A DNA stretch of 64,000 bases from Thiothrix sp. UBA5583 (GTDB lineage: Bacteria > Pseudomonadota > Gammaproteobacteria > Thiotrichales > Thiotrichaceae). Both the position numbers and the translations under genes were made by a program. The notes below the pieces were generated by a model. The model had not been told where the DNA came from. It was given only the letters and a program-made list of their open reading frames with translations, and searched no databases. This document shows, in pieces, positions 11,274-20,097 of this stretch. The first letter of the stretch is position 1, and each line of letters opens with the position of its first letter. Location of the stretch: positions 62,001 to 126,000 of the forward strand of contig DILV01000038.1 in the NCBI GenBank assembly GCA_002425225.1, written 5' to 3'.

Positions 11274-12170
11274 ATGCTGCCACTATCCGGCCTAGCTTAC
11301 GGCGCGTTGCTGATTTTAGCATCCGAATTTTTTCTGGTGAGCGCGGGGATGGTGATTAAACACCTGAACGGCGTGGTCTCGACGGAACAAACCGTGTTTT
11401 TCCGCAATGCGTTTGCGCTGTTGCTGCTGTTGCCGTGGTTGTGGCGCAGTGGGCTGCGGGCAGTGAAAACCGATTGCTTGCACCTGCATTTTTTGCGCTC
11501 GCTGCTGGGCGTCACCGCCATGAGCTGCATGTTCTATGCTTGGGGGCATCTGCCCTTGGCGCAAAGCGCGTTGTTGAAGCAAACCATGCCGCTGTTCGTA
11601 CCGATTGTGGCGTTTTTCTGGGTGGGGGAACGCTTGTCCTGGCGTAACTTTGTGGCGATTGGCTTGGGGTTTGCCGGGGTGCTGTTGGTGCTGAACCCGT
11701 TTCAGGAGGAGGCAGTTTTCAATCTGGCGGTGGTATTGGGGCTGGTTGGTGCAGTGATGGGCGGCTCAACCAAGGTAAGTATCCGACGGATGCGTTCGAG
11801 CGAGGAGCCAGCTTTGCGGGTGGTGTTTTATTTTGCCTTGTTTGCCAGTATGTTGTCGGTGATTCCGGCAGCATTAGCGTGGTTGCCGCTGACTGGGGAA
11901 ACCTTGCTGTGGTTATTCCTGTTGGGGGTGTTGGCAACCTTGGCGCAGTGGGCGTTGACGGCGGCGTATGGTCATGCTCCTGCGGGGCAATTGGGGGCGT
12001 TTACCTATGCGTCGGTGATTTTCGCGGCGGTATTGGGTTGGTGGTTATGGGATGAAAGCCTGACGTTGCTGGCGATGGCAGGGATCGGGATTATCATTGC
12101 CGCCGGGTTGCTGGTGATGCTGGGGCAAGCACGTTTACCCATAGCAGGATTGGTGAAGGGTGAGACATGA
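11274..12170 (+). CDS. EamA/DMT family membrane transporter
   Basis: The 298-residue protein is almost entirely hydrophobic, with about ten transmembrane helices in two repeated five-helix EamA halves. The drug/metabolite transporter pattern is seen in segments such as FLRSLLGVTAMSCMFYAW and WRNFVAIGLGFAGVLLVL, and near the end in the conserved TYASVIFAAVLGWWLWDE. Such proteins export or import small metabolites; the substrate cannot be read from the sequence. The ATG at 11274 follows GGAGAAGG, while longer in-frame versions would overlap pyc and read through the repeat arm. It may be co-transcribed with pyc. Confidence 0.88.
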   Translation: MLPLSGLAYGALLILASEFFLVSAGMVIKHLNGVVSTEQTVFFRNAFALLLLLPWLWRSGLRAVKTDCLHLHFLRSLLGVTAMSCMFYAWGHLPLAQSALLKQTMPLFVPIVAFFWVGERLSWRNFVAIGLGFAGVLLVLNPFQEEAVFNLAVVLGLVGAVMGGSTKVSIRRMRSSEEPALRVVFYFALFASMLSVIPAALAWLPLTGETLLWLFLLGVLATLAQWALTAAYGHAPAGQLGAFTYASVIFAAVLGWWLWDESLTLLAMAGIGIIIAAGLLVMLGQARLPIAGLVKGET

Positions 12171-12266
12171 ACAGCACGAAGGTGTTGGCATGATGTTATC
12201 GATCGCTGATTAATCCCCGCTGCCACCCCCATTCCTGTCGCCAGAATCCCCTGAACTGCTTCCGCA

Positions 12267-12488
12267 CTACTGTTTGACTGTGCTGAGGGTGTCTTTCAAT
12301 CCATTCCAGACTTTACCCAACAAGTTACGGGCTTTGGGTTTATCCTGTGGAGCGACAAGTGCTTTGTTCACTTCGGCAACAGCCAGAAGGGACTCAGGAT
12401 CAAGACTGCCAAGATCCTTGAGCAAACTACCTATGATGGTGGCGATTTGTTGGCGTTGGTCGGTAGTCACGTCACCACCAATCATCAT
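12267..12488 (-). pseudogene. Probable C-terminal fragment of a larger protein
   Basis: The 73-residue frame begins MMIGGDVTTDQRQQIATIIG, has no Shine-Dalgarno sequence, and is closed a few codons upstream by a stop. The GGDV...QR start resembles C-terminal helical modules attached to bacterial effector or NTPase proteins, which often follow a GGDV-type beta strand; this is a weak, memory-based resemblance. I read it as a leftover of a larger gene, but a free-standing small protein is possible. Confidence 0.35.
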
Positions 12489-12551
12489 GGAGAAAATAAT
12501 GGGTAGGGATCACCGATTTTTCAGAAAGCGCAACAACGTAATGCATATTGC

Positions 12552-12704
12552 ATGACACTGGGCAAGCTGCACGCCAAACTGATACAAAAAGTCGATTTCA
12601 ACGACCCCAGCTTCTGGGCAGCGGCGAATAAACGTGACCTGATGAGTACGCCGGAACGCTGCATCGCATCAGAAAAGCGCCAAAACAATGACTTGCCTCA
12701 ATGA
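12552..12704 (+). pseudogene. Short gene remnant, unrecognised
   Basis: A 50-codon frame (MTLGKLHAKLIQKVDFNDPS...) with protein-like composition that stays open upstream of the ATG for several codons, as a decayed C-terminus would. It lies in the 593-base stretch between the EamA transporter and nhaD (12171-12763), which holds no intact gene that I can support. Confidence 0.3.
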
Positions 12705-12763
12705 CGCACGGAAATTATTTTGCGCATGATGCTAACTTCTTGAAACGCCCATAAGGAACTACC

Positions 12764-14080
12764 ATGACTGAGATTGCCAGCTTTACCGGCTCAGGCTACG
12801 GCATTATCGCGCTGCTGATCTTTTTTGCCGCCTACACGCTTGTGATACTGGAAGAACGCTTCCATTTGCGTAAGTCCAAGCCTGTCATGTTCGCCGCCGG
12901 ACTCATCTGGGTACTGGTCGCTTTGGCCTACGCTAGCGTGGGCAAGATTGAGGAAATGCAGGAAATCTTCAACCACAACTTGCTGGAATACGCCCAGTTG
13001 TTGCTGTTCCTGCTGGCGGCGATGACTTACATCAGTACGCTGGAAGAGCGCAACATCTTTGAGGCATTACGCGCCTGGCTAGTGTCGAAGGGCTTTTCGC
13101 TGTACTGGATTTTCTGGATCACCGGGATTCTGGCGTTTTTCATCTCCTCTATAGCTGACAACCTGACCACTGCATTGCTGATGTCGGCAGTGGTGATTGC
13201 GGTTGCCCCCAACCGCCCGCAATACCTTGCCATGTCGTGCGTCAATCTGGTGGTGGCAGCCAATGCGGGTGGGGCATTCAGCCCGTTCGGCGACATTACT
13301 ACCCTGATGGTGTGGCAGTCCGGTGTCGTCAAATTCTGGGAGTTTTTCGAGTTGTTCGTGCCGTCACTGGTGAACTGGTTTGTGCCTGCGCTGATCATGT
13401 CGTTCTTCATCGACAAGGGGCATCCTGATCCGTTGACAGCCACCGTTTCCATCAAGCGCGGCGGACTGGTGATTCTCGCCCTGTTTATTGGCACGATCGT
13501 GACGGCGGTGACGTTCCACAACTCGCTGCACCTGCCACCCGTGCTGGGGATGATGACCGGTTTGGCGGCCCTGCAATTGTTTGGCTGGTATCTGAAGATT
13601 TCCGACAATATTCCCGACAATGACAACGAAGTGGCTGAGGTCGGGCGTTTCGACATTTTTTCCCAGTTGCAGAAGGCGGAGTGGGATACGCTGCTGTTCT
13701 TCTACGGCGTGGTGTTGTGCGTTGGCGGGCTGGGTGCGCTGGGTTATCTGGCGCTGGTTTCCGAAGTGATCTATACCGGCATGGGGCCGGTGTGGGCAGG
13801 CGTGTTGGTGGGGATCATTTCAGCGGTGGTGGACAATATTCCGGTGATGTTTGCGGTGTTGACCATGCACCCGGATATGTCACTGGGTGGCTGGTTGCTG
13901 GTGACATTGACTGCCGGGGTCGGTGGCTCGCTGCTGTCCATCGGCTCGGCTGCCGGGGTGGCACTGATGGGGCAGGCACGCGGCATGTATACCTTCAATT
14001 CTCATTTGAAATGGTCAGGTGCGATCATGCTGGGTTATATCGCCAGCATTTTGGTACACCTGTGGCTTAATGGTGTGTAA
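12764..14080 (+). CDS. nhaD: NhaD family Na+/H+ antiporter
   Basis: A 438-residue polytopic inner-membrane protein of the ion transporter superfamily that exchanges sodium (or lithium) for protons. It has a dozen or so hydrophobic helices and family segments such as SSIADNLTTALLMSAV, NAGGAFSPFGDITTLMVWQ and SAVVDNIPVMFAVLTM, where the paired DN...T motifs form the two ion-binding half-sites. The last segment GGSLLSIGSAAGVALMGQAR is also typical. It appears to be a single-gene unit with ATG preceded by AAGGA. It suggests life in saline or alkaline water, but is not diagnostic. Confidence 0.93.
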   Translation: MTEIASFTGSGYGIIALLIFFAAYTLVILEERFHLRKSKPVMFAAGLIWVLVALAYASVGKIEEMQEIFNHNLLEYAQLLLFLLAAMTYISTLEERNIFEALRAWLVSKGFSLYWIFWITGILAFFISSIADNLTTALLMSAVVIAVAPNRPQYLAMSCVNLVVAANAGGAFSPFGDITTLMVWQSGVVKFWEFFELFVPSLVNWFVPALIMSFFIDKGHPDPLTATVSIKRGGLVILALFIGTIVTAVTFHNSLHLPPVLGMMTGLAALQLFGWYLKISDNIPDNDNEVAEVGRFDIFSQLQKAEWDTLLFFYGVVLCVGGLGALGYLALVSEVIYTGMGPVWAGVLVGIISAVVDNIPVMFAVLTMHPDMSLGGWLLVTLTAGVGGSLLSIGSAAGVALMGQARGMYTFNSHLKWSGAIMLGYIASILVHLWLNGV

Positions 14081-14241
14081 CAGGAACCACCGTATAGCGT
14101 GGCGAAGCCGGTGTTTGATGAATACGATCTGGATGGTTGTTCCATTGACCCCGATGATTTTCTCTGACGGAGGTAGGGATACCATGTGTTTGCGTTTACT
14201 ATACTGAGCCATCGACGTCACAGCATGTGAGGAAATAACGT
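14081..14241 (+). other. Gap with a decayed reading frame after nhaD
   Basis: Directly after the nhaD stop an open frame without a start runs to a TGA at 14165-14167 and encodes KPVFDEYDLDGCSIDPDDF-like acidic sequence. It looks like the 3' end of a lost gene whose 5' part was replaced. The rest of the stretch shows nothing that I can name. Confidence 0.3.
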
Positions 14242-14376
14242 ATGACAACGGTAATAATCCAAGTGCCTGATTCTGTGCTACCTTCGCTGCACCTTGATCC
14301 GGCTGGTTTTGTGCGTGAGATGCGCCTTGCTGCTGCTATCTTCCCCCTTTCACTTAAACGAAGCAGAATTGCTTGA
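14242..14376 (+). pseudogene. Truncated UPF0175-like antitoxin gene
   Basis: The first 32 codons, MTTVIIQVPDSVLPSLHLDP followed by AGFVREMRLAAAI, match the N-terminus of small UPF0175 proteins, which are predicted antitoxins of toxin-antitoxin loci. After AAAI the family continues with a KLYELGRLS helix and a helix-turn-helix, whereas here the frame turns into FPLSLKRSRIA and stops at codon 45. This points to a frameshift or deletion that removed the DNA-binding half. No PIN-like toxin gene follows. Confidence 0.55.
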
Positions 14377-14384
14377 GGAGCTGC

Positions 14385-14603
14385 ATGGACTCTGTTAAGC
14401 ACAACTACACCGAAGAGCGTCAGCAGTGGTTGGGTAATCCGACATTGGAAGAAATTAGGGCCGATATTCTCAAGCTCAAGCAAGACCCAAGCAATCCATT
14501 GAATCAGCAAGAACCCCACTTTTTGCTACGGGCAGAGCGAGGAGGTGGCAAGACTGAGCGCGGGCTGGAGTTGCTGCGCAAAGCTATGGTGACACGTGGA
14601 TAA
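14385..14603 (+). CDS. Small ORF of unknown function
   Basis: A 72-residue frame starting MDSVKHNYTEERQQWLGNPT, with GAGGAG eight bases upstream. The body is charged and helical, with LEEIRADILKLKQDPSNPL and an Arg/Gly-rich RAERGGGKTERG stretch near the end. I do not recognise the family. It follows the broken antitoxin-like gene and ends just before the convergent Cas2-Cas6 gene. It could be a real small protein or another fragment of this worn region. Confidence 0.4.
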   Translation: MDSVKHNYTEERQQWLGNPTLEEIRADILKLKQDPSNPLNQQEPHFLLRAERGGGKTERGLELLRKAMVTRG

Positions 14604-14608
14604 TAGGC

Positions 14609-14633
14609 TTCATTTAATGGAAATCAATGAAGT
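14609..14633. other. Hairpin between the small ORF and the Cas2-Cas6 gene
   Basis: CTTCATT and AATGAAG are perfect inverted repeats separated by 11 bases, lying seven bases beyond the Cas2-Cas6 stop codon and just after the convergent small ORF. There is no clear T-tract on either strand, so a terminator role is only possible. It is a single unit and not a CRISPR repeat. Confidence 0.35.
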
Positions 14634-14639
14634 TTGGCC

Positions 14640-15875
14640 TTATTGATTCGGTGGCAGCAATGAACTGGCGGGAGGAACCCGGTGGTAGGTTTGCTCTCCG
14701 TCGGCATCCACCAGCAGATAACGTCCCCAGCCGAATGTGGTGCGTTGACCTAATCCAAGGTATTGCCCCAGTACTAGCAATTCCCACCAGAACGTGGACA
14801 AATCTGTGGGGAGTTGCAGGTGAATGTGCCCGTTGATCCCGCCCATTTCCTTATACTTATGGTTCGCACCTCTATAGCCCGCATCTAACCAAAACAAGTG
14901 GGAGGCTATCACAGTAGAATCCGGGACGGTTTGTTGTAGCGGCTGGATCTCGCCCCGACGGCGCAGTAAATCCGCCACGCTGCTATGCAGGCGGCTGAAT
15001 AGTAAGTTGGCGCCCACTTCCGCACTATCGCGCACATAGCGCTTATCACCCTTGGCTTTTACACCATTCGCCTCGCGTTGCTGCTTATTTTTGAGCAGCA
15101 GAGCAGGAGCCAACCATCGCCATTGCACTTGTTGCTTGCCAGCCCACAGCGCTGCCTCGCCTCGTAACTCTTTCTCCCCGTAGTAGCCAGCCTGCTCCAT
15201 ACTGGTGATGATGGTTCCGCTGAACATGTCTTGCACCGCTTCGAGTTTCCAGTTGTCGGCAAATGGCAGTTCATGCCCTTGTTTGGGGGCACTGAACGGC
15301 AATTGCGCCAGTTTGGTCAGCATCATCTCCAGCAGCGCATCACTGCCAGCCAACCCGATTAGCAAGAAACGGTAATGATCATGCTTGCGGTAGGCTACCT
15401 GCCCGCTTTCCGGCGCATCTAGGCGAACAAGTTGGTCATAAGCGTCCGGCGAACCGGTGAGGAAGCGCAAAAATGCGGTGAGGGCAGGTTGGTGGAAAAA
15501 GGACGGACGGGCAGTGGAGACGCACCGCAATGTGACGACTAGACCGCGCAGAGGTAACAGGGAATAGAATGGGAAAACGTCAGTGGCTGTGCTTGCAGCA
15601 TTATCAGTAGGGGGGAAATCAGCAATTCGCTCGTCTCTCTTTACTATGTGAGACTTGCTGCGGCAATCGTGGCACAGGTGGTAGAAACGCAGATCGTCGC
15701 CAGGTTCTAGCCAGAATTTTAGGGAAATTTTCAGCGCTAGCAACTGCTTCGTCGACTGTACACTGATCTCAAACACAGATTTCTGTACCCGCAGGCCATA
15801 TGCCTCCAGCAATGCTACGATGTGTAGCCGGTTACGGTCGTCTTGGATGTCGAAGCAGGCGAGGTAGGTGTCCAT
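14640..15875 (-). CDS. CRISPR-associated fusion protein: Cas2 domain followed by Cas6 endoribonuclease domain
   Basis: The 411-residue protein joins two Cas proteins. Residues 1-75 are Cas2: MDTYLACFDIQDDRNRLHIV with the first-strand aspartate (D9), then LLEAYGLRVQKSVFEI and LRFYHLCHDC, all typical of the Cas2 ferredoxin fold of the adaptation complex. A linker (about 76-100) leads into a RAMP protein. It has FFHQPALTAFLRFLTG (H128 is a candidate catalytic residue), FLLIGLAG, and at 370-385 the glycine-rich loop GQYLGLGQRTTFGWGR of Cas6, which cuts pre-crRNA. The ATG at 15875 gives the exact Cas2 start. No cas1, effector gene or repeat array lies in the window, so it must act on arrays elsewhere or be an orphan. 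Confidence 0.85.
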   Translation of the reverse strand: MDTYLACFDIQDDRNRLHIVALLEAYGLRVQKSVFEISVQSTKQLLALKISLKFWLEPGDDLRFYHLCHDCRSKSHIVKRDERIADFPPTDNAASTATDVFPFYSLLPLRGLVVTLRCVSTARPSFFHQPALTAFLRFLTGSPDAYDQLVRLDAPESGQVAYRKHDHYRFLLIGLAGSDALLEMMLTKLAQLPFSAPKQGHELPFADNWKLEAVQDMFSGTIITSMEQAGYYGEKELRGEAALWAGKQQVQWRWLAPALLLKNKQQREANGVKAKGDKRYVRDSAEVGANLLFSRLHSSVADLLRRRGEIQPLQQTVPDSTVIASHLFWLDAGYRGANHKYKEMGGINGHIHLQLPTDLSTFWWELLVLGQYLGLGQRTTFGWGRYLLVDADGEQTYHRVPPASSLLPPNQ

Positions 15876-16238
15876 AAAGAAAACAATATTACAATTATTT
15901 AAATTAATAGACTGCCAATAAATCACTGAAAATTCAAGATAATTAGGATTGACTTGCTGAAAAAAATTCCATTCCAGTCTTTTCGACTGTTATGTAGCTT
16001 GTATTTCAGTGTTATATTATCTCCTGTTTGGTCACAAGAGTGTGAAACAGATTGGTGGCTGGAGTTTAGATTAATTCTATAAAAATCAATGCTTTGGGTG
16101 TTTGCATGAAGATGAAGAAGACATTGTGCTAGCGTTTTTGGAAAAGTCATAGATTGTAGCCACAGTTTGATGAGAAATCTTTAACCAAAATTGATTTGTG
16201 GTACAATCCAAATATTTACTAATAAGATTGGGGGCTTT
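15876..16238. other. AT-rich divergent intergenic region
   Basis: This 363-base stretch separates the Cas2-Cas6 gene (leftward) from the 4TM/nucleotidyltransferase pair (rightward) and should hold both promoters. It is visibly richer in A and T than the flanking housekeeping DNA. I see no CRISPR repeats, tRNA or convincing inverted repeats. A 75-codon leftward frame (15923-16150) is present but has no recognisable content or ribosome-binding site. Confidence 0.5.
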
Positions 16239-17060
16239 GTGATTGACGACTTAGAGCATTATTATACTTCTGTCTATGACGAAGCGGCAAGATATTCATC
16301 TTTTAGAAAATGGCTATTTAAAATTATGCTACTATTTTTAGTGGTATCAGTTTTTGTGAATGGCTACTTGTTGTATATAATTATGACGGCCTTGTTTTTT
16401 TGTCAAATCAGTATTTCTTACTTAAAATCTCAAGTTGATCGCTTATATATGCTTGGGCATAACTTGCAAAAGCATTCAATGTTGGGAAATACTATGCCTG
16501 ATAGTATTGATGTTGAAGATGTGGCTAATTTAAAAAGCCAAGTAAGCTTAGGAGTTGTCGATGCTGTTAAGAAAAAAATAGAACAGCAACAGGACTCTGT
16601 AACATATTTCAAAGAAGATTCTTATTCAGGTCTTGAAAAATTGAGATGGATGATTCATGAAAATAGTTTTAAGAACTCACATTTCTATAATTATTCTTAT
16701 GCGGAAAACATGAGGATGTTTGTTGTTGCGATTGTAATATTAATATTTTCTTTATTAATATTAATGCCATACATAAAAGATGATCCATCGCTAACTATCC
16801 CTAAACTTGCATTCACAATTCTATCAATTGGCTTAATTTATGAGTTTTTTGAAGAAACCATGAAAACTAAAAAAACAGTCGATCTTATGAAGGGCGTTGA
16901 TGAGTTTTTATCGAAAAATACAAGTGCTGATAGCCAGATAATTATTGATGTTTTTTCTCGTTATAATGAAGCAAAGTTGATTACACCTAATATACCATTC
17001 TCAATATATAATAAACATGGAGATAGGATTGCATCACTATGGAAGCAAAAGATGGCATAA
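16239..17060 (+). CDS. Four-helix membrane protein, possible S-4TM-like effector
   Basis: The 273-residue product has two close hydrophobic helices (about 25-41 and 43-60), a long polar helical middle with KLRWMIHENSFKNSHFYNYS, and a second pair (about 157-177 and 186-205) followed by a soluble tail. This 2TM-helical-2TM layout, with the tail IPFSIYNKHGDRIASLWKQ, resembles the S-4TM membrane effectors predicted in nucleotide-centred conflict systems, but the assignment rests on topology and memory. The GTG at 16239 is four bases after GGGGG; a TTG at 16191 is an alternative. Codons are strongly AT-rich, unlike neighbours, suggesting acquisition by transfer. It overlaps the next gene by 22 bases. 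Confidence 0.6.
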   Translation: MIDDLEHYYTSVYDEAARYSSFRKWLFKIMLLFLVVSVFVNGYLLYIIMTALFFCQISISYLKSQVDRLYMLGHNLQKHSMLGNTMPDSIDVEDVANLKSQVSLGVVDAVKKKIEQQQDSVTYFKEDSYSGLEKLRWMIHENSFKNSHFYNYSYAENMRMFVVAIVILIFSLLILMPYIKDDPSLTIPKLAFTILSIGLIYEFFEETMKTKKTVDLMKGVDEFLSKNTSADSQIIIDVFSRYNEAKLITPNIPFSIYNKHGDRIASLWKQKMA

Positions 17061-17503
17061 ATAAAATATTGAAGTTAAATGAAGAGCTATTGCCTGTTAA
17101 TGGCCTTTGGGCGATAACAGGTGGAGCCAATCATTTTATTAGAGGCATTGTTAGTGAGATTAATGATGTTGACATAATAACGACTAAGGAAACAGGATTA
17201 GAAATAAGTAATAAATTTTTGAATTATATTTTCAAGAATTATGAATATACTCAATCCGAGCGAATTATTTCTAATTTTTGCATTATAAAGTTTAATGGAT
17301 TAAATATAGATGTCATGGCTGACCCAGTTAATTTGATAGGTGATAAGTGGGTTGTTAATAAAGAGTGGAGTAATAGTATTGAAATATTTAATGCTTTTGG
17401 CATGAGCTTTCCATTAACAACATTAAAATATGAGTTATATATATATAACTTGCTAGGTCATTTTGATAGGGTAAGGCTGCTTAGGTCTTTTCTAGAGGAA
17501 TGA
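17039..17503 (+). CDS. Small nucleotidyltransferase-fold protein
   Basis: The 154-residue protein has the marks of a minimal nucleotidyltransferase: WAITGGANHFIRGI with the GG motif, then EINDVDIITT giving the DxD metal-binding pair, and FNGLNIDVMADP supplying the third acidic residue. The arrangement is closest to the aminoglycoside/lincosamide adenylyltransferase-like group, not the larger CD-NTases of CBASS. Its start lies inside the end of the 4TM gene, so translation is coupled and the two probably act together. Possible roles are modification of a protein or RNA, or making a nucleotide signal for the membrane partner; none is shown. Base composition is as AT-rich as its partner. Confidence 0.65.
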   Translation: MEAKDGINKILKLNEELLPVNGLWAITGGANHFIRGIVSEINDVDIITTKETGLEISNKFLNYIFKNYEYTQSERIISNFCIIKFNGLNIDVMADPVNLIGDKWVVNKEWSNSIEIFNAFGMSFPLTTLKYELYIYNLLGHFDRVRLLRSFLEE

Positions 17504-17716
17504 TTTTGGATACAGGGAAATAATAGCAGTTATCGGTAGCGTAGGATGGTGCTTCTACAAATAATAATTAGATTGTTGATCAATGGTTTGAAAATTTATA
17601 GTTGTATTGGCTAATGTCATAACGTTATGAATATACAGGGTATTTTAACAATATTCTTCGCTAATTTAACTTGGTGAGTCAGTTTTTCGGGGTTTTTTGA
17701 AAAATAATATTTTCAC

Positions 17717-19969
17717 TCACCCCGTCAACGTAACAAACACCTGCGTCATCCTTTCCGGCAACCGCTGTACATTATCCACCACGGTAACGCGCTTGCCGAA
17801 AATATCCCGCACATATTCATCCGCTCGCGGATCAAGGCTAATGCAATAGCTGTAAATGCCTTTCTGATCCAGTTCTTTCACCGCTTGGCGCATATCTTGC
17901 GTCAATAATTGCGGGTCATCCACATCAATATCCGACGGTTCGCCATCGGTTAAAATCAGCAGCAGTTTTTTATCAGCCTGTTGATGCTCCAGATAATGCG
18001 CCGCATGGCGAACCGCCGCACCCATCCGCGTCGAATACCCCGCCTGCATCGCTGCCAGCCGCCCCTTCACCTCATCGTTCCAGTGTTCCTTGAAACCCTT
18101 GATGTGCTGGTAACGCACCTCATGGCGCGTATTGGACGCAAACCCGGCAATCGCAAACGGGTCGCCCAACGCCTCAATCGCATACGCCAGCAACGACACC
18201 GCTTCCTGGCTCAGTTCCAGAATGCTTTGCGTGCAGCCTTCCGGCGTTTCGCTGATCGAAGCCGACAAATCCAGCAGCAGCATCACCGCGATATTGCGCC
18301 CGTCATGCTTGTGGCTCATATTGATGCGCGGGTCAGGGTTCGCCCCGCCCTTGAAATCAATCAGCGAACGGATCGCCACATCCAAATCCAGCTCGCTGCC
18401 TTCTTCCTGATAGCGTACCCGCGTGTAATTTTGCGGCTTCAACAAATCCACAATCTGCTTCAAACGCTTCGCCAACGCCGCGTGTTTTTGCAACAGCGCA
18501 TCAATCACTGCCGGATTACCCGCCGGATGCAAACTTTCATACACGCTTGTCCAATCCGGTCGATAGGTCTGCGTGCTGTAATCCCACTCAGGGTAATGGC
18601 GCGGTGGCAAACCGGATTGTTCGTTTTGCTGCGCGGTTTGCTTGTGTTCGTCGAAGAATTCTTCGTCGTCGCTTTCCTCGATGTACTGCCACAAATGGCG
18701 GTTATCATCGCGGTAAGGAATGGCGGTATGGTTGAAATACACGCTCGGCAACTGGTCAGTTTGCAAGCGCGTCTGTGCCACAAACGAAATCGCCACAGTC
18801 ACCATATCCGCCGTCGTCGCGTTGCCTTCTGCCATTTTTGCGTGGAACTTGCCCGCAAATTCATTGATTTTCGCGTTCTGATAGCCATGCGCCGGATTCA
18901 AAATCGCCCAGGACAACATCGCCAACCGATGCCGGAAGCAAGATTCGGTCTTGGAATCGCACTCGTTTTCCAGCGGGGCAGGGTGCAACGCCGTGAATAT
19001 CCGCCGTAAACCGGGATATTCCTGCATTGCCAGATATTCCACCCGACTGTCTTCGAGGCGTTCAATCGCAATGCGCTGCTGTGGGCTGAAATTATCTGCC
19101 ACCACTTTATGCGTCCAGCGTTGATGCGCCGCCATGTGCGCCAACACCGCGCGGTAACGGTCAATCCCCGTCACACCGTGTGCATCGTCGAACACATCGG
19201 GAATGCGCATCCCGTATTCATCAAAGTACGGTTGCTGTTCGCGCACATCGCGGAAATCCACCGAATACGGCACGAGGTATTCGTGGCTCTGCCAACAGGC
19301 TTGCAAATACAAATTCAGCTTGCGCTCGTTATGCGTAAACAGTGTGCCGTGGCGTTCGTGCTGCAACATCGCCTTGGCATCAGCGGATTGCAGGCTGAAA
19401 TACTCTTCTTGCCGATGCGGGTGTTTGCCGTAGTTGCGGATGCCGTAGTCGATCCAGTTTTTCAAGCCGCCCAAGGCTAACTGGCTCATTAAATAAGGCA
19501 TTTGTTCCAGCAATTTGGGCAAGCCGGGGCTGGGGATGGTGGTGTGGAAACCGTGGATCGAACCTGTGGTGCGCTCCATCATTTCAAACAGCAGGGCGAT
19601 GTAATGCCCAACCAATTCCTCGCTTTCGAGACGGCGGCATACGTCGGGTAGGGTCTGCAAGAAGATGGGAATAATGCGCCCGTTCGGGGTACGCGAGATT
19701 TTCCACACCGCTTGGCTAACACGGGTCAACATTCCTTCGCCGAGCTTGTGGGCGATGACCGGCATTTCTTCCAGATAGGTCAGCACGGGGTCGAAACCGC
19801 GCCCGATTTTGCACACCAACGACGCACCGTCGAGGTAATCCTTGATGCCTTGCTCGCTCAACAGCGCGAGTGCGTCCTGCATACAGGCGGCGAAGGCTTC
19901 ATCAAGCTGCTTGAAGTTGCAGCTTAGTTGGGCGCGGTAACGGGCGATGGTTTCGTTGGCTTCTTGCAT
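17717..19969 (-). CDS. cbbO: CbbO, VWA adaptor of the form II RuBisCO activase
   Basis: CbbO works with the AAA+ ring CbbQ to remove inhibitory sugar phosphates from RuBisCO. The 750-residue protein has a long helical N-terminal part and a C-terminal VWA domain whose MIDAS begins LLLDLSASISE near residue 564 and continues to ILTDGEPSD. It is the last gene of cbbM-cbbQ-cbbO, beginning after a palindromic repeat downstream of cbbQ, with GGAG ahead of its ATG. In Acidithiobacillus, paired QO complexes are specific for form I or form II RuBisCO; position here suggests the form II partner. The 213-base AT-rich gap downstream (17504-17716) shows nothing else. Confidence 0.92.
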   Translation of the reverse strand: MQEANETIARYRAQLSCNFKQLDEAFAACMQDALALLSEQGIKDYLDGASLVCKIGRGFDPVLTYLEEMPVIAHKLGEGMLTRVSQAVWKISRTPNGRIIPIFLQTLPDVCRRLESEELVGHYIALLFEMMERTTGSIHGFHTTIPSPGLPKLLEQMPYLMSQLALGGLKNWIDYGIRNYGKHPHRQEEYFSLQSADAKAMLQHERHGTLFTHNERKLNLYLQACWQSHEYLVPYSVDFRDVREQQPYFDEYGMRIPDVFDDAHGVTGIDRYRAVLAHMAAHQRWTHKVVADNFSPQQRIAIERLEDSRVEYLAMQEYPGLRRIFTALHPAPLENECDSKTESCFRHRLAMLSWAILNPAHGYQNAKINEFAGKFHAKMAEGNATTADMVTVAISFVAQTRLQTDQLPSVYFNHTAIPYRDDNRHLWQYIEESDDEEFFDEHKQTAQQNEQSGLPPRHYPEWDYSTQTYRPDWTSVYESLHPAGNPAVIDALLQKHAALAKRLKQIVDLLKPQNYTRVRYQEEGSELDLDVAIRSLIDFKGGANPDPRINMSHKHDGRNIAVMLLLDLSASISETPEGCTQSILELSQEAVSLLAYAIEALGDPFAIAGFASNTRHEVRYQHIKGFKEHWNDEVKGRLAAMQAGYSTRMGAAVRHAAHYLEHQQADKKLLLILTDGEPSDIDVDDPQLLTQDMRQAVKELDQKGIYSYCISLDPRADEYVRDIFGKRVTVVDNVQRLPERMTQVFVTLTG

Positions 19970-19987
19970 AATTGACTCCGGGAATTA

Positions 19988-20097
19988 CCCCTCACCCCAA
20001 CCCCTCTCCCTCAAGGGGAGAGGGGCTAAGAAAGGAATGCCATTATTCTCTTGTTCCCCCTCGCCCCTTGAGGGAGAGGGGGCTAGGGGGTGAGGGG
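19988..20097. repeat. Paired inverted GC-rich repeat between cbbQ and cbbO (form II cluster)
   Basis: Two inverted arms of about 31-34 bases bracket a short unrelated centre. Each arm reads CCCCTCACCCC, a short variable piece, then TCTCCCTCAAGGGG, and each arm can also fold on itself around CTCAAGGGGAG or CCCTTGAGGG. In the cbbQ-cbbO transcript it would form a large hairpin that could stabilise or process the mRNA. Confidence 0.85.

What the first reader, a model, noticed from the sequence alone, without database searches (positions are those of the whole stretch)
14640..15875. Cas2 fused to Cas6 in one protein, with no array or other cas genes in the window
The first 75 residues are Cas2 (spacer integration) and the C-terminal two thirds are Cas6 (crRNA processing). 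Cas6 is known fused to reverse transcriptase-Cas1, but a direct Cas2-Cas6 chain is not an architecture I know as standard. It would tie the adaptation complex to the nuclease that recognises the repeat hairpin or to new transcripts. The frame is intact and the junction contains a linker rather than a stop/start, so it is not an annotation error. The gene is in a region of worn fragments, so it may be either an orphan or a working module acting on distant arrays.
Basis: partly seen in the sequence, partly recalled or inferred. Interest (0 to 1): 0.75.

Follow-up and report, generated by a model that had tools for sequence, protein, structure and literature searches.

The report
Stranded Cas2-Cas6 fusion from decayed CRISPR
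A single intact gene joins two CRISPR proteins, Cas2 and Cas6, but it looks like the leftover front end of a known CRISPR module whose reverse transcriptase and integrase parts have been lost, so it is more likely a fossil than a new machine.

Summary
The gene is real: 411 codons on the MINUS strand (window 15875 to 14640), open throughout, Cas2 at residues 1-87, Cas6 at 105-407. The Cas6 part belongs to the Cas6-RT-Cas1 family. In three Thiothrix-family relatives, cas2 sits directly before cas6-RT-cas1 in a type III operon, overlapping it by 1 or 4 bases in another frame. The window gene is that pair run together: the end of Cas2 and the stop/start are gone, and RT-Cas1 is missing from just past Cas6. 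Homology to the operon stops 10 bases before the start codon and at residue 407. Searches of the genome found no RT-Cas1, no match to that operon's Cas10 and no array with its repeat; the one system detected, a III-B type on another contig, has its own Cas6, Cas1 and Cas2. No other genome returned by the searches carries the fusion. Both folds and key residues are kept, and the Cas6 part shows purifying selection along its branch, so the fusion is either recent or still used. Best reading: a stranded by-product of deletion, perhaps still able to cut its lost cognate repeat RNA. A working Cas2-Cas6 protein is possible but unsupported; all rests on one assembly.

The parts
14640..15875 (-). cas2-cas6 fusion gene, 411 aa plus stop
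15615..15875 (-). Cas2 part, residues 1-87; D9 kept; 34 of 35 positions invariant in four relatives are kept
15564..15614 (-). Junction/linker, residues 88-104; replaces the Cas2 tail and the stop/start overlap seen in relatives; no in-frame ATG/GTG/TTG between residues 46 and 115; residues 78-98 have pLDDT under 50
14655..15563 (-). Cas6 part of a Cas6-RT-Cas1 protein, residues 105-407; H128, R137 and the GQ..FGWGRY loop kept; 88 of 94 positions invariant in six relatives are kept
14640..14654 (-). Four unrelated residues and stop where the relatives continue into RT-Cas1; homology ends here
15876..15885 (-). Last 10 bases upstream that still match the operon of L068; beyond them unrelated DNA of about 30% G+C
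14087..14588 (+). Worn toxin-antitoxin scraps (truncated UPF0175 antitoxin) that also lie beside cbbO in G051 (Thiothrix fructosivorans); not part of the cas gene
16110..16161 (+). Tail of a lost xisI gene; the same site in G051 has a whole xisI and no homologue of the cas gene

Best explanation
A stranded remnant of a type III adaptation module. The ancestor carried cas2 overlapping cas6-RT-cas1. A deletion or recombination left only cas2 and the Cas6 front of cas6-RT-cas1 in a patch of worn toxin-antitoxin genes. A frame change at the overlap, together with loss of the cas2 stop, turned the two into one open frame. SHOWN: domain content, kinship, boundaries, and that searches found no RT-Cas1, no match to that Cas10 and no copy of the relatives' repeat. 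INFERRED: if it is still made, its Cas6 half could cut its old repeat RNA, for which no array was found, and its Cas2 half is unlikely to serve in integration, because its Cas1 partner and its own last residues are gone. It therefore most likely has no CRISPR role now.
For: cas2 directly precedes cas6-RT-cas1 in three of six relatives (L068, L069, L071), overlapping by 1 or 4 bases with the same frame offset; the MAG L129 also has cas2 directly ahead of cas6 in another frame. Homology to the operon stops abruptly: 10 of 10 bases then chance upstream, 4 of 12 then chance downstream. Own genome: no RT-Cas1, no match to L068's Cas10 (no positive control), no cognate repeat at up to 3 mismatches. 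Its III-B-type locus has its own Cas6, Cas1 and Cas2. Decay of the same module is seen in other genomes: cas2 missing in G051 (L067), cas2 down to a 13-residue match and the Cas6 frame cut to 495 aa in G038 (L070), stops and a frame break inside the Cas6 match in G564. By eye no ribosome-binding-like purine run lies just upstream of the start, and no promoter-like match lies between 15876 and 16110.
Against: The frame is intact over 411 codons. Invariant positions are kept about as well as in the relatives. On the window branch the Cas6 part has omega 0.13 (values within 1.92 log-units about 0.07-0.29, interpolated on an 11-value grid), omega 1 is rejected (2dlnL 13.5), and it does not differ from background. 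A fusion that had been useless for most of that branch should look worse. The Cas2 part is uninformative in this test. That only the two domains were retained, with clean edges, is also what selection for them would leave.
Confidence: 0.72

Rival explanations
1. A functional single-chain Cas2-Cas6. Two chains pair through Cas2, giving a dimer with two Cas6 nucleases that cuts repeat-like RNA in trans or feeds repeat-bound RNA to another Cas1.
For: Cas2 fold confident and Cas6 fold recognisable; D9, H128 and R137 kept; R137 aligns with the Thiomicrospira active-site R37 if the 3-residue tag offset I assume is right. Purifying selection on the Cas6 branch. As the sequence stands a whole Cas6 can only be made as a fusion.
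Against: One genome only: no other genome returned by the searches carries it. No cognate array or RT-Cas1 partner found. The Cas2 tail is missing. The III-B-type system has its own Cas2 and Cas6 and an unrelated-looking repeat.
Confidence: 0.13
2. Sequencing or assembly error at the junction joins what are really a separate cas2 and a truncated cas6.
For: Three relatives have the two genes overlapping in different frames. The junction contains a short homopolymer run. One assembly of 42 contigs, reads not held.
Against: Without the join the Cas6 part has no start codon in its present frame between residues 46 and 115. Cas2's conserved tail and the usual overlap are missing, which a single read error does not obviously explain. 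The gene lies at 76643-77875 of a 129998-base contig, far from its ends. The loss of RT-Cas1 stands either way.
Confidence: 0.12
3. Repurposed RNase: the Cas2 half, whose fold is shared with VapD-type RNases (recalled), and the Cas6 half act on cellular RNA as a toxin- or regulator-like enzyme among toxin-antitoxin genes.
For: Catalytic residues kept; neighbouring toxin-antitoxin scraps.
Against: The neighbours are broken; no whole antitoxin gene was recognised beside it; no sequence sign of a changed active site.
Confidence: 0.03

Closest known systems
Cas6-RT-Cas1 plus Cas2 module of Thiothrix-family type III loci (L067-L072)
   Same: Cas2 identity 55-64% (four relatives), Cas6 identity 48-69% (six relatives); same gene order in L068, L069, L071
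   Different: Here Cas2 and Cas6 are one chain, RT and Cas1 are absent, and no operon, array or effector accompanies it
Marinomonas mediterranea MMB-1 Cas6-RT-Cas1 (6dd5, Cas6 domain)
   Same: Cas6 domain is the closest solved relative by sequence and by fold
   Different: MMB-1 Cas6 is part of a Cas6-RT-Cas1 fusion; Cas2 is a separate protein there (recalled)
Thiomicrospira Cas6-RT-Cas1-Cas2 complex (7kft/7kfu; PMC8102632, passages seen)
   Same: Cas2 and Cas6 both match its chains; the paper shows one complex with a central Cas2 dimer and outlying Cas6-RT lobes
   Different: Two polypeptides and an integrase core there; in that complex RT is the part near the Cas2 dimer and Cas6 abuts RT, so a direct Cas2-Cas6 join does not copy its geometry

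Membership tests
Cas2 | Family profile and ferredoxin fold | tested here: met
   Pfam 1.8e-13, TIGR01573 37.9 bits against cut-off 24.5; pLDDT over 90 in residues 1-60; Foldseek to Cas2 chains
Cas2 | Conserved Asp at the end of the first strand (D9) | tested here: met
   D9 in the window and in all four relatives aligned
Cas2 | C-terminal hydrophobic tail present in relatives (LAVML and the like; Cas1 docking is recalled, not tested) | tested here: not met
   The last five residues of the four relatives are absent and replaced by the linker
Cas2 | Partner Cas1 of the same module in the genome | tested here: not met
   Only the III-B Cas1 on contig C27, 33% identical to the RT-Cas1 query
Cas6 of the Cas6-RT-Cas1 family | Homology over the whole Cas6 domain | tested here: met
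   Residues 93-399 to 6dd5, E 1.4e-45; 48-69% identity to relatives; note TIGR01877 is below its cut-off, 15.3 against 58.65 bits
Cas6 of the Cas6-RT-Cas1 family | Active-site and glycine-rich loop residues | tested here: met
   H128, R137 and 13 positions between G370 and Y386 are invariant across window and six relatives; the match to R37 of PMC8102632 assumes a tag offset
Cas6 of the Cas6-RT-Cas1 family | Cognate repeat array in the genome | tested here: not met
   No copy at up to 3 mismatches of a repeat consensus from four relatives; a more diverged repeat would be missed
Cas6-RT-Cas1 adaptation module | RT and Cas1 domains | tested here: not met
   No trace in the window or elsewhere in the genome other than the III-B Cas1
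Cas6 | Endoribonuclease activity on repeat RNA | not testable with these tools
   needs an assay

The most novel reading that the evidence does not exclude
A maintained, working Cas2-Cas6 protein: after losing RT-Cas1 the cell kept a Cas2-dimerised, double-headed Cas6 that processes RNA in trans or competes with or regulates other CRISPR modules.
Probability: 0.12. Interest if true: 0.6.

Novelty: new variant of a known kind. Interest (0 to 1): 0.3.

Why it matters
More usefully, it shows how it can arise: cas2 and cas6-RT-cas1 overlap in different frames in several relatives, so a frame change there can fuse them. Two relatives show loss of cas2 or truncation of the Cas6-RT-Cas1 gene and a third has a broken Cas6, so these RNA-spacer modules seem to erode piecemeal. 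If the fusion proved active, it would be a compact two-headed RNA processor.

Tried and rejected
Rejected: the fused Cas6 serves the genome's own III-B arrays. That locus has its own Cas6 and a repeat of unrelated sequence; not excluded biochemically.

Rejected: the L126, L127 and L129 hits covering query 1-407 as further fusions; in each, Cas2 and Cas6 lie in different frames. The G038 hit (query 63-407 with five stops) is a decayed cas2 plus a Cas6 frame, not a fusion. The G007 hit across the junction (query 47-128 with two stops) is only a Cas2 end at the edge of a short contig on re-alignment. The G544 hit has Cas2 and Cas6 in separate places, and its one stop lies ahead of the Cas6 domain; I dropped it as evidence of decay after checking.

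Rejected: the C14 Cas2 family hit as a relevant Cas2; the frame there looks by eye like a long secreted protein, a weak match.

Led nowhere: the first genome-contig scan with the single protein, the viral contigs, phages, Rfam over 12000-20000. The plasmid search gave 8 records, none covering 80% of the query. The Cas2 half is too short and too diverged for a selection test. Synonymous sites are near saturation, so omega values are rough.

Not done: raw reads, other strains of the species, expression data, a scan of the whole genome for arrays of unknown repeat or for systems without cas1.

Full report
WHAT IS THERE. The gene lies on the minus strand, window 15875 to 14640, 411 codons and a stop. 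Residues 1-87 are Cas2 and 105-407 are Cas6. The best solved relatives are the Cas6 domain of Marinomonas MMB-1 Cas6-RT-Cas1 (6dd5, E 1.4e-45), Thiomicrospira Cas6-RT-Cas1 (7kft_D, 2.8e-29) and Thiomicrospira Cas2 (7kft_B, 5.2e-10). An AlphaFold model from 11 aligned rows has mean pLDDT 74.6 and pTM 0.65. The Cas2 fold is confident, residues 78-98 are below 50, and the Cas6 half has blocks of middling and low confidence. Foldseek ranks 6dd5 first (E 2.7e-23) and finds many Cas2 chains.

WHERE IT COMES FROM. A search of 63 genomes of the order found a match at E 0.001 or better in 18, own genome included. Six relatives carry strong homologues (E below 1e-94); the other 11 have weak partial hits (best E 8.9e-7). 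In L068, L069 and L071 cas2 is a separate gene directly ahead of cas6-RT-cas1. In L068 this is the end of an operon with a Cas10-like protein and three RAMP-like proteins; L069 and L071 have similar-looking frames in the same order, not scanned against families. The two genes overlap by 1 or 4 bases with one and the same frame offset. In L072 cas2 follows cas6-RT-cas1. In L070 (G038; likewise Thiofilum flexile) a 13-residue match to cas2 is left and the Cas6 frame is cut to 495 aa. The window gene is colinear with the cas2/cas6 pair. Its Cas6 ends in ...ASSLL, where relatives run on into RT; four residues later it stops. Upstream, the 10 bases before the ATG match L068 exactly and then the match drops to chance; downstream the match is at chance from residue 408 on. 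tblastn with 16 proteins of the relatives (Cas6-RT-Cas1, Cas2, Cas10, RAMP and others) finds only this gene in the window, including a weak match of a second Cas6 to the same place.

WHERE IT SITS. It lies between worn toxin-antitoxin scraps and the tail of xisI, near cbbO. G051 has the same site with a whole UPF0175 antitoxin and a whole xisI, and its only homologue of the cas gene is elsewhere. The DNA just upstream has 30% G+C, the gene 54%. No promoter-like match lies between 15876 and 16110 on its strand; the nearest upstream is at 16290-16261, and such matches are hardly commoner than in shuffles (4 against mean 2.5).

THE REST OF THE GENOME. Family searches find one Cas1 (contig C27), four Cas2 matches (two on C27, this gene, and a doubtful one on C14), and with one Cas6 profile this gene and a Cas6 on C27. 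C27 holds a III-B-type system with Cas10/Cmr2, Cmr3, CARF-HEPN and CARF-RelE proteins and two arrays; its repeat core occurs 48 times, all on C27. RT-Cas1 was not found. The relatives' Cas10 gave no match, although that call had no positive control. A consensus of the repeats next to L067, L068, L069 and L070 has no copy at up to three mismatches. Systems without cas1, or arrays with another repeat, were not looked for.

HOW RARE IS IT. Class sample: 11 of 369 genomes match at E 1e-10, own included, and only G000 covers the query from Cas2 through Cas6 in one open frame. Phylum sample: 5 of 398, own included, again only G000. These samples and the order search overlap. Named genome contigs: 8 loci, none fused. 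Plasmids: 8 records, none covering 80%. Phages and viral contigs: none. Papers: 2 for 'Cas2-Cas6', and 7 (those 2 among them) for six phrasings; none is about such a fusion by its listing. I read passages of PMC6299218 and PMC11742911, where the words list gene order, and nothing of the other five. Passages of PMC5513706 describe Cas6-RT-Cas1 as a clade with later fissions; the main text has no word beginning with Cas2. The library lacks most subscription journals.

IS IT STILL SELECTED? The window keeps 88 of 94 Cas6 positions invariant in the six relatives and 34 of 35 Cas2 positions invariant in four. Leaving out other rows in turn gives 88 of 89 to 88 of 114 for Cas6 and 34 of 35 to 34 of 40 for Cas2; the best of these Cas6 rows have a close relative in the set, and L070 comes from a decayed locus. 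A codon model on 297 Cas6 codons gives omega 0.13 on the window branch against 0.09 elsewhere; equal omegas fit as well (2dlnL 0.94) and omega 1 does not (2dlnL 13.5). Values within 1.92 log-units run from about 0.07 to 0.29 by interpolation. If the relatives set the norm, at most about a fifth of the branch could have been free of constraint (my arithmetic). So the fusion is either young or constrained; the data do not say which. On 87 Cas2 codons even omega 1 is not rejected. The tree shape was set by me from the identities, and synonymous sites are near saturation.

HOW IT WOULD WORK. Shown: sequence, folds, kept residues, edges, partners not found. From the literature (passages of PMC8102632): in Thiomicrospira the complex cuts its 35-nt repeat with 97% efficiency, and mutating the Cas6 residue R37 reduces this to 12%; the RT and Cas1 mutants tested cut as well as wild type, so a Cas6 half alone could plausibly cut. 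Inferred: R137 corresponds to R37. Inferred: with no array of its repeat and no Cas1 partner found, the protein has nothing obvious to act on. Hence a stranded remnant is the best reading, with a working fusion and a junction error as live rivals.

Noticed in passing
L003 9582-12024 (own genome, contig C27): The III-B-type locus carries a doubled adaptation set: a Cas2-like protein, a normal Cas1, a second, diverged Cas1-like protein of 261 aa matching Cas1 models mainly over its first 100-145 residues, and a Cas2. PADLOC has a model 'Cas1, diverged variant, second in the loci' that is its best hit.
   Followed up: partly
L068 11572-18342, and similar frames in L067, L069-L072: The relatives' effector operon has a Cas10-like protein of 548 aa without an NCBIfam match and RAMP proteins whose parts resemble TIGR03986, Csx7 and segments of Cas7-11; it may be an unnamed type III variant. 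Only L068 was scanned.
   Followed up: partly
L003 12887-14927 and L004 3949-5944: Two arrays flank the III-B-type locus with 36-base repeats that differ from each other at three neighbouring positions near the 5' end and are otherwise alike.
   Followed up: no
window 16191-17503: Two adjoining plus-strand frames of about 30% G+C (289 and 154 aa), far below the window's 53%, without a significant Pfam match: likely a recent import.
   Followed up: no
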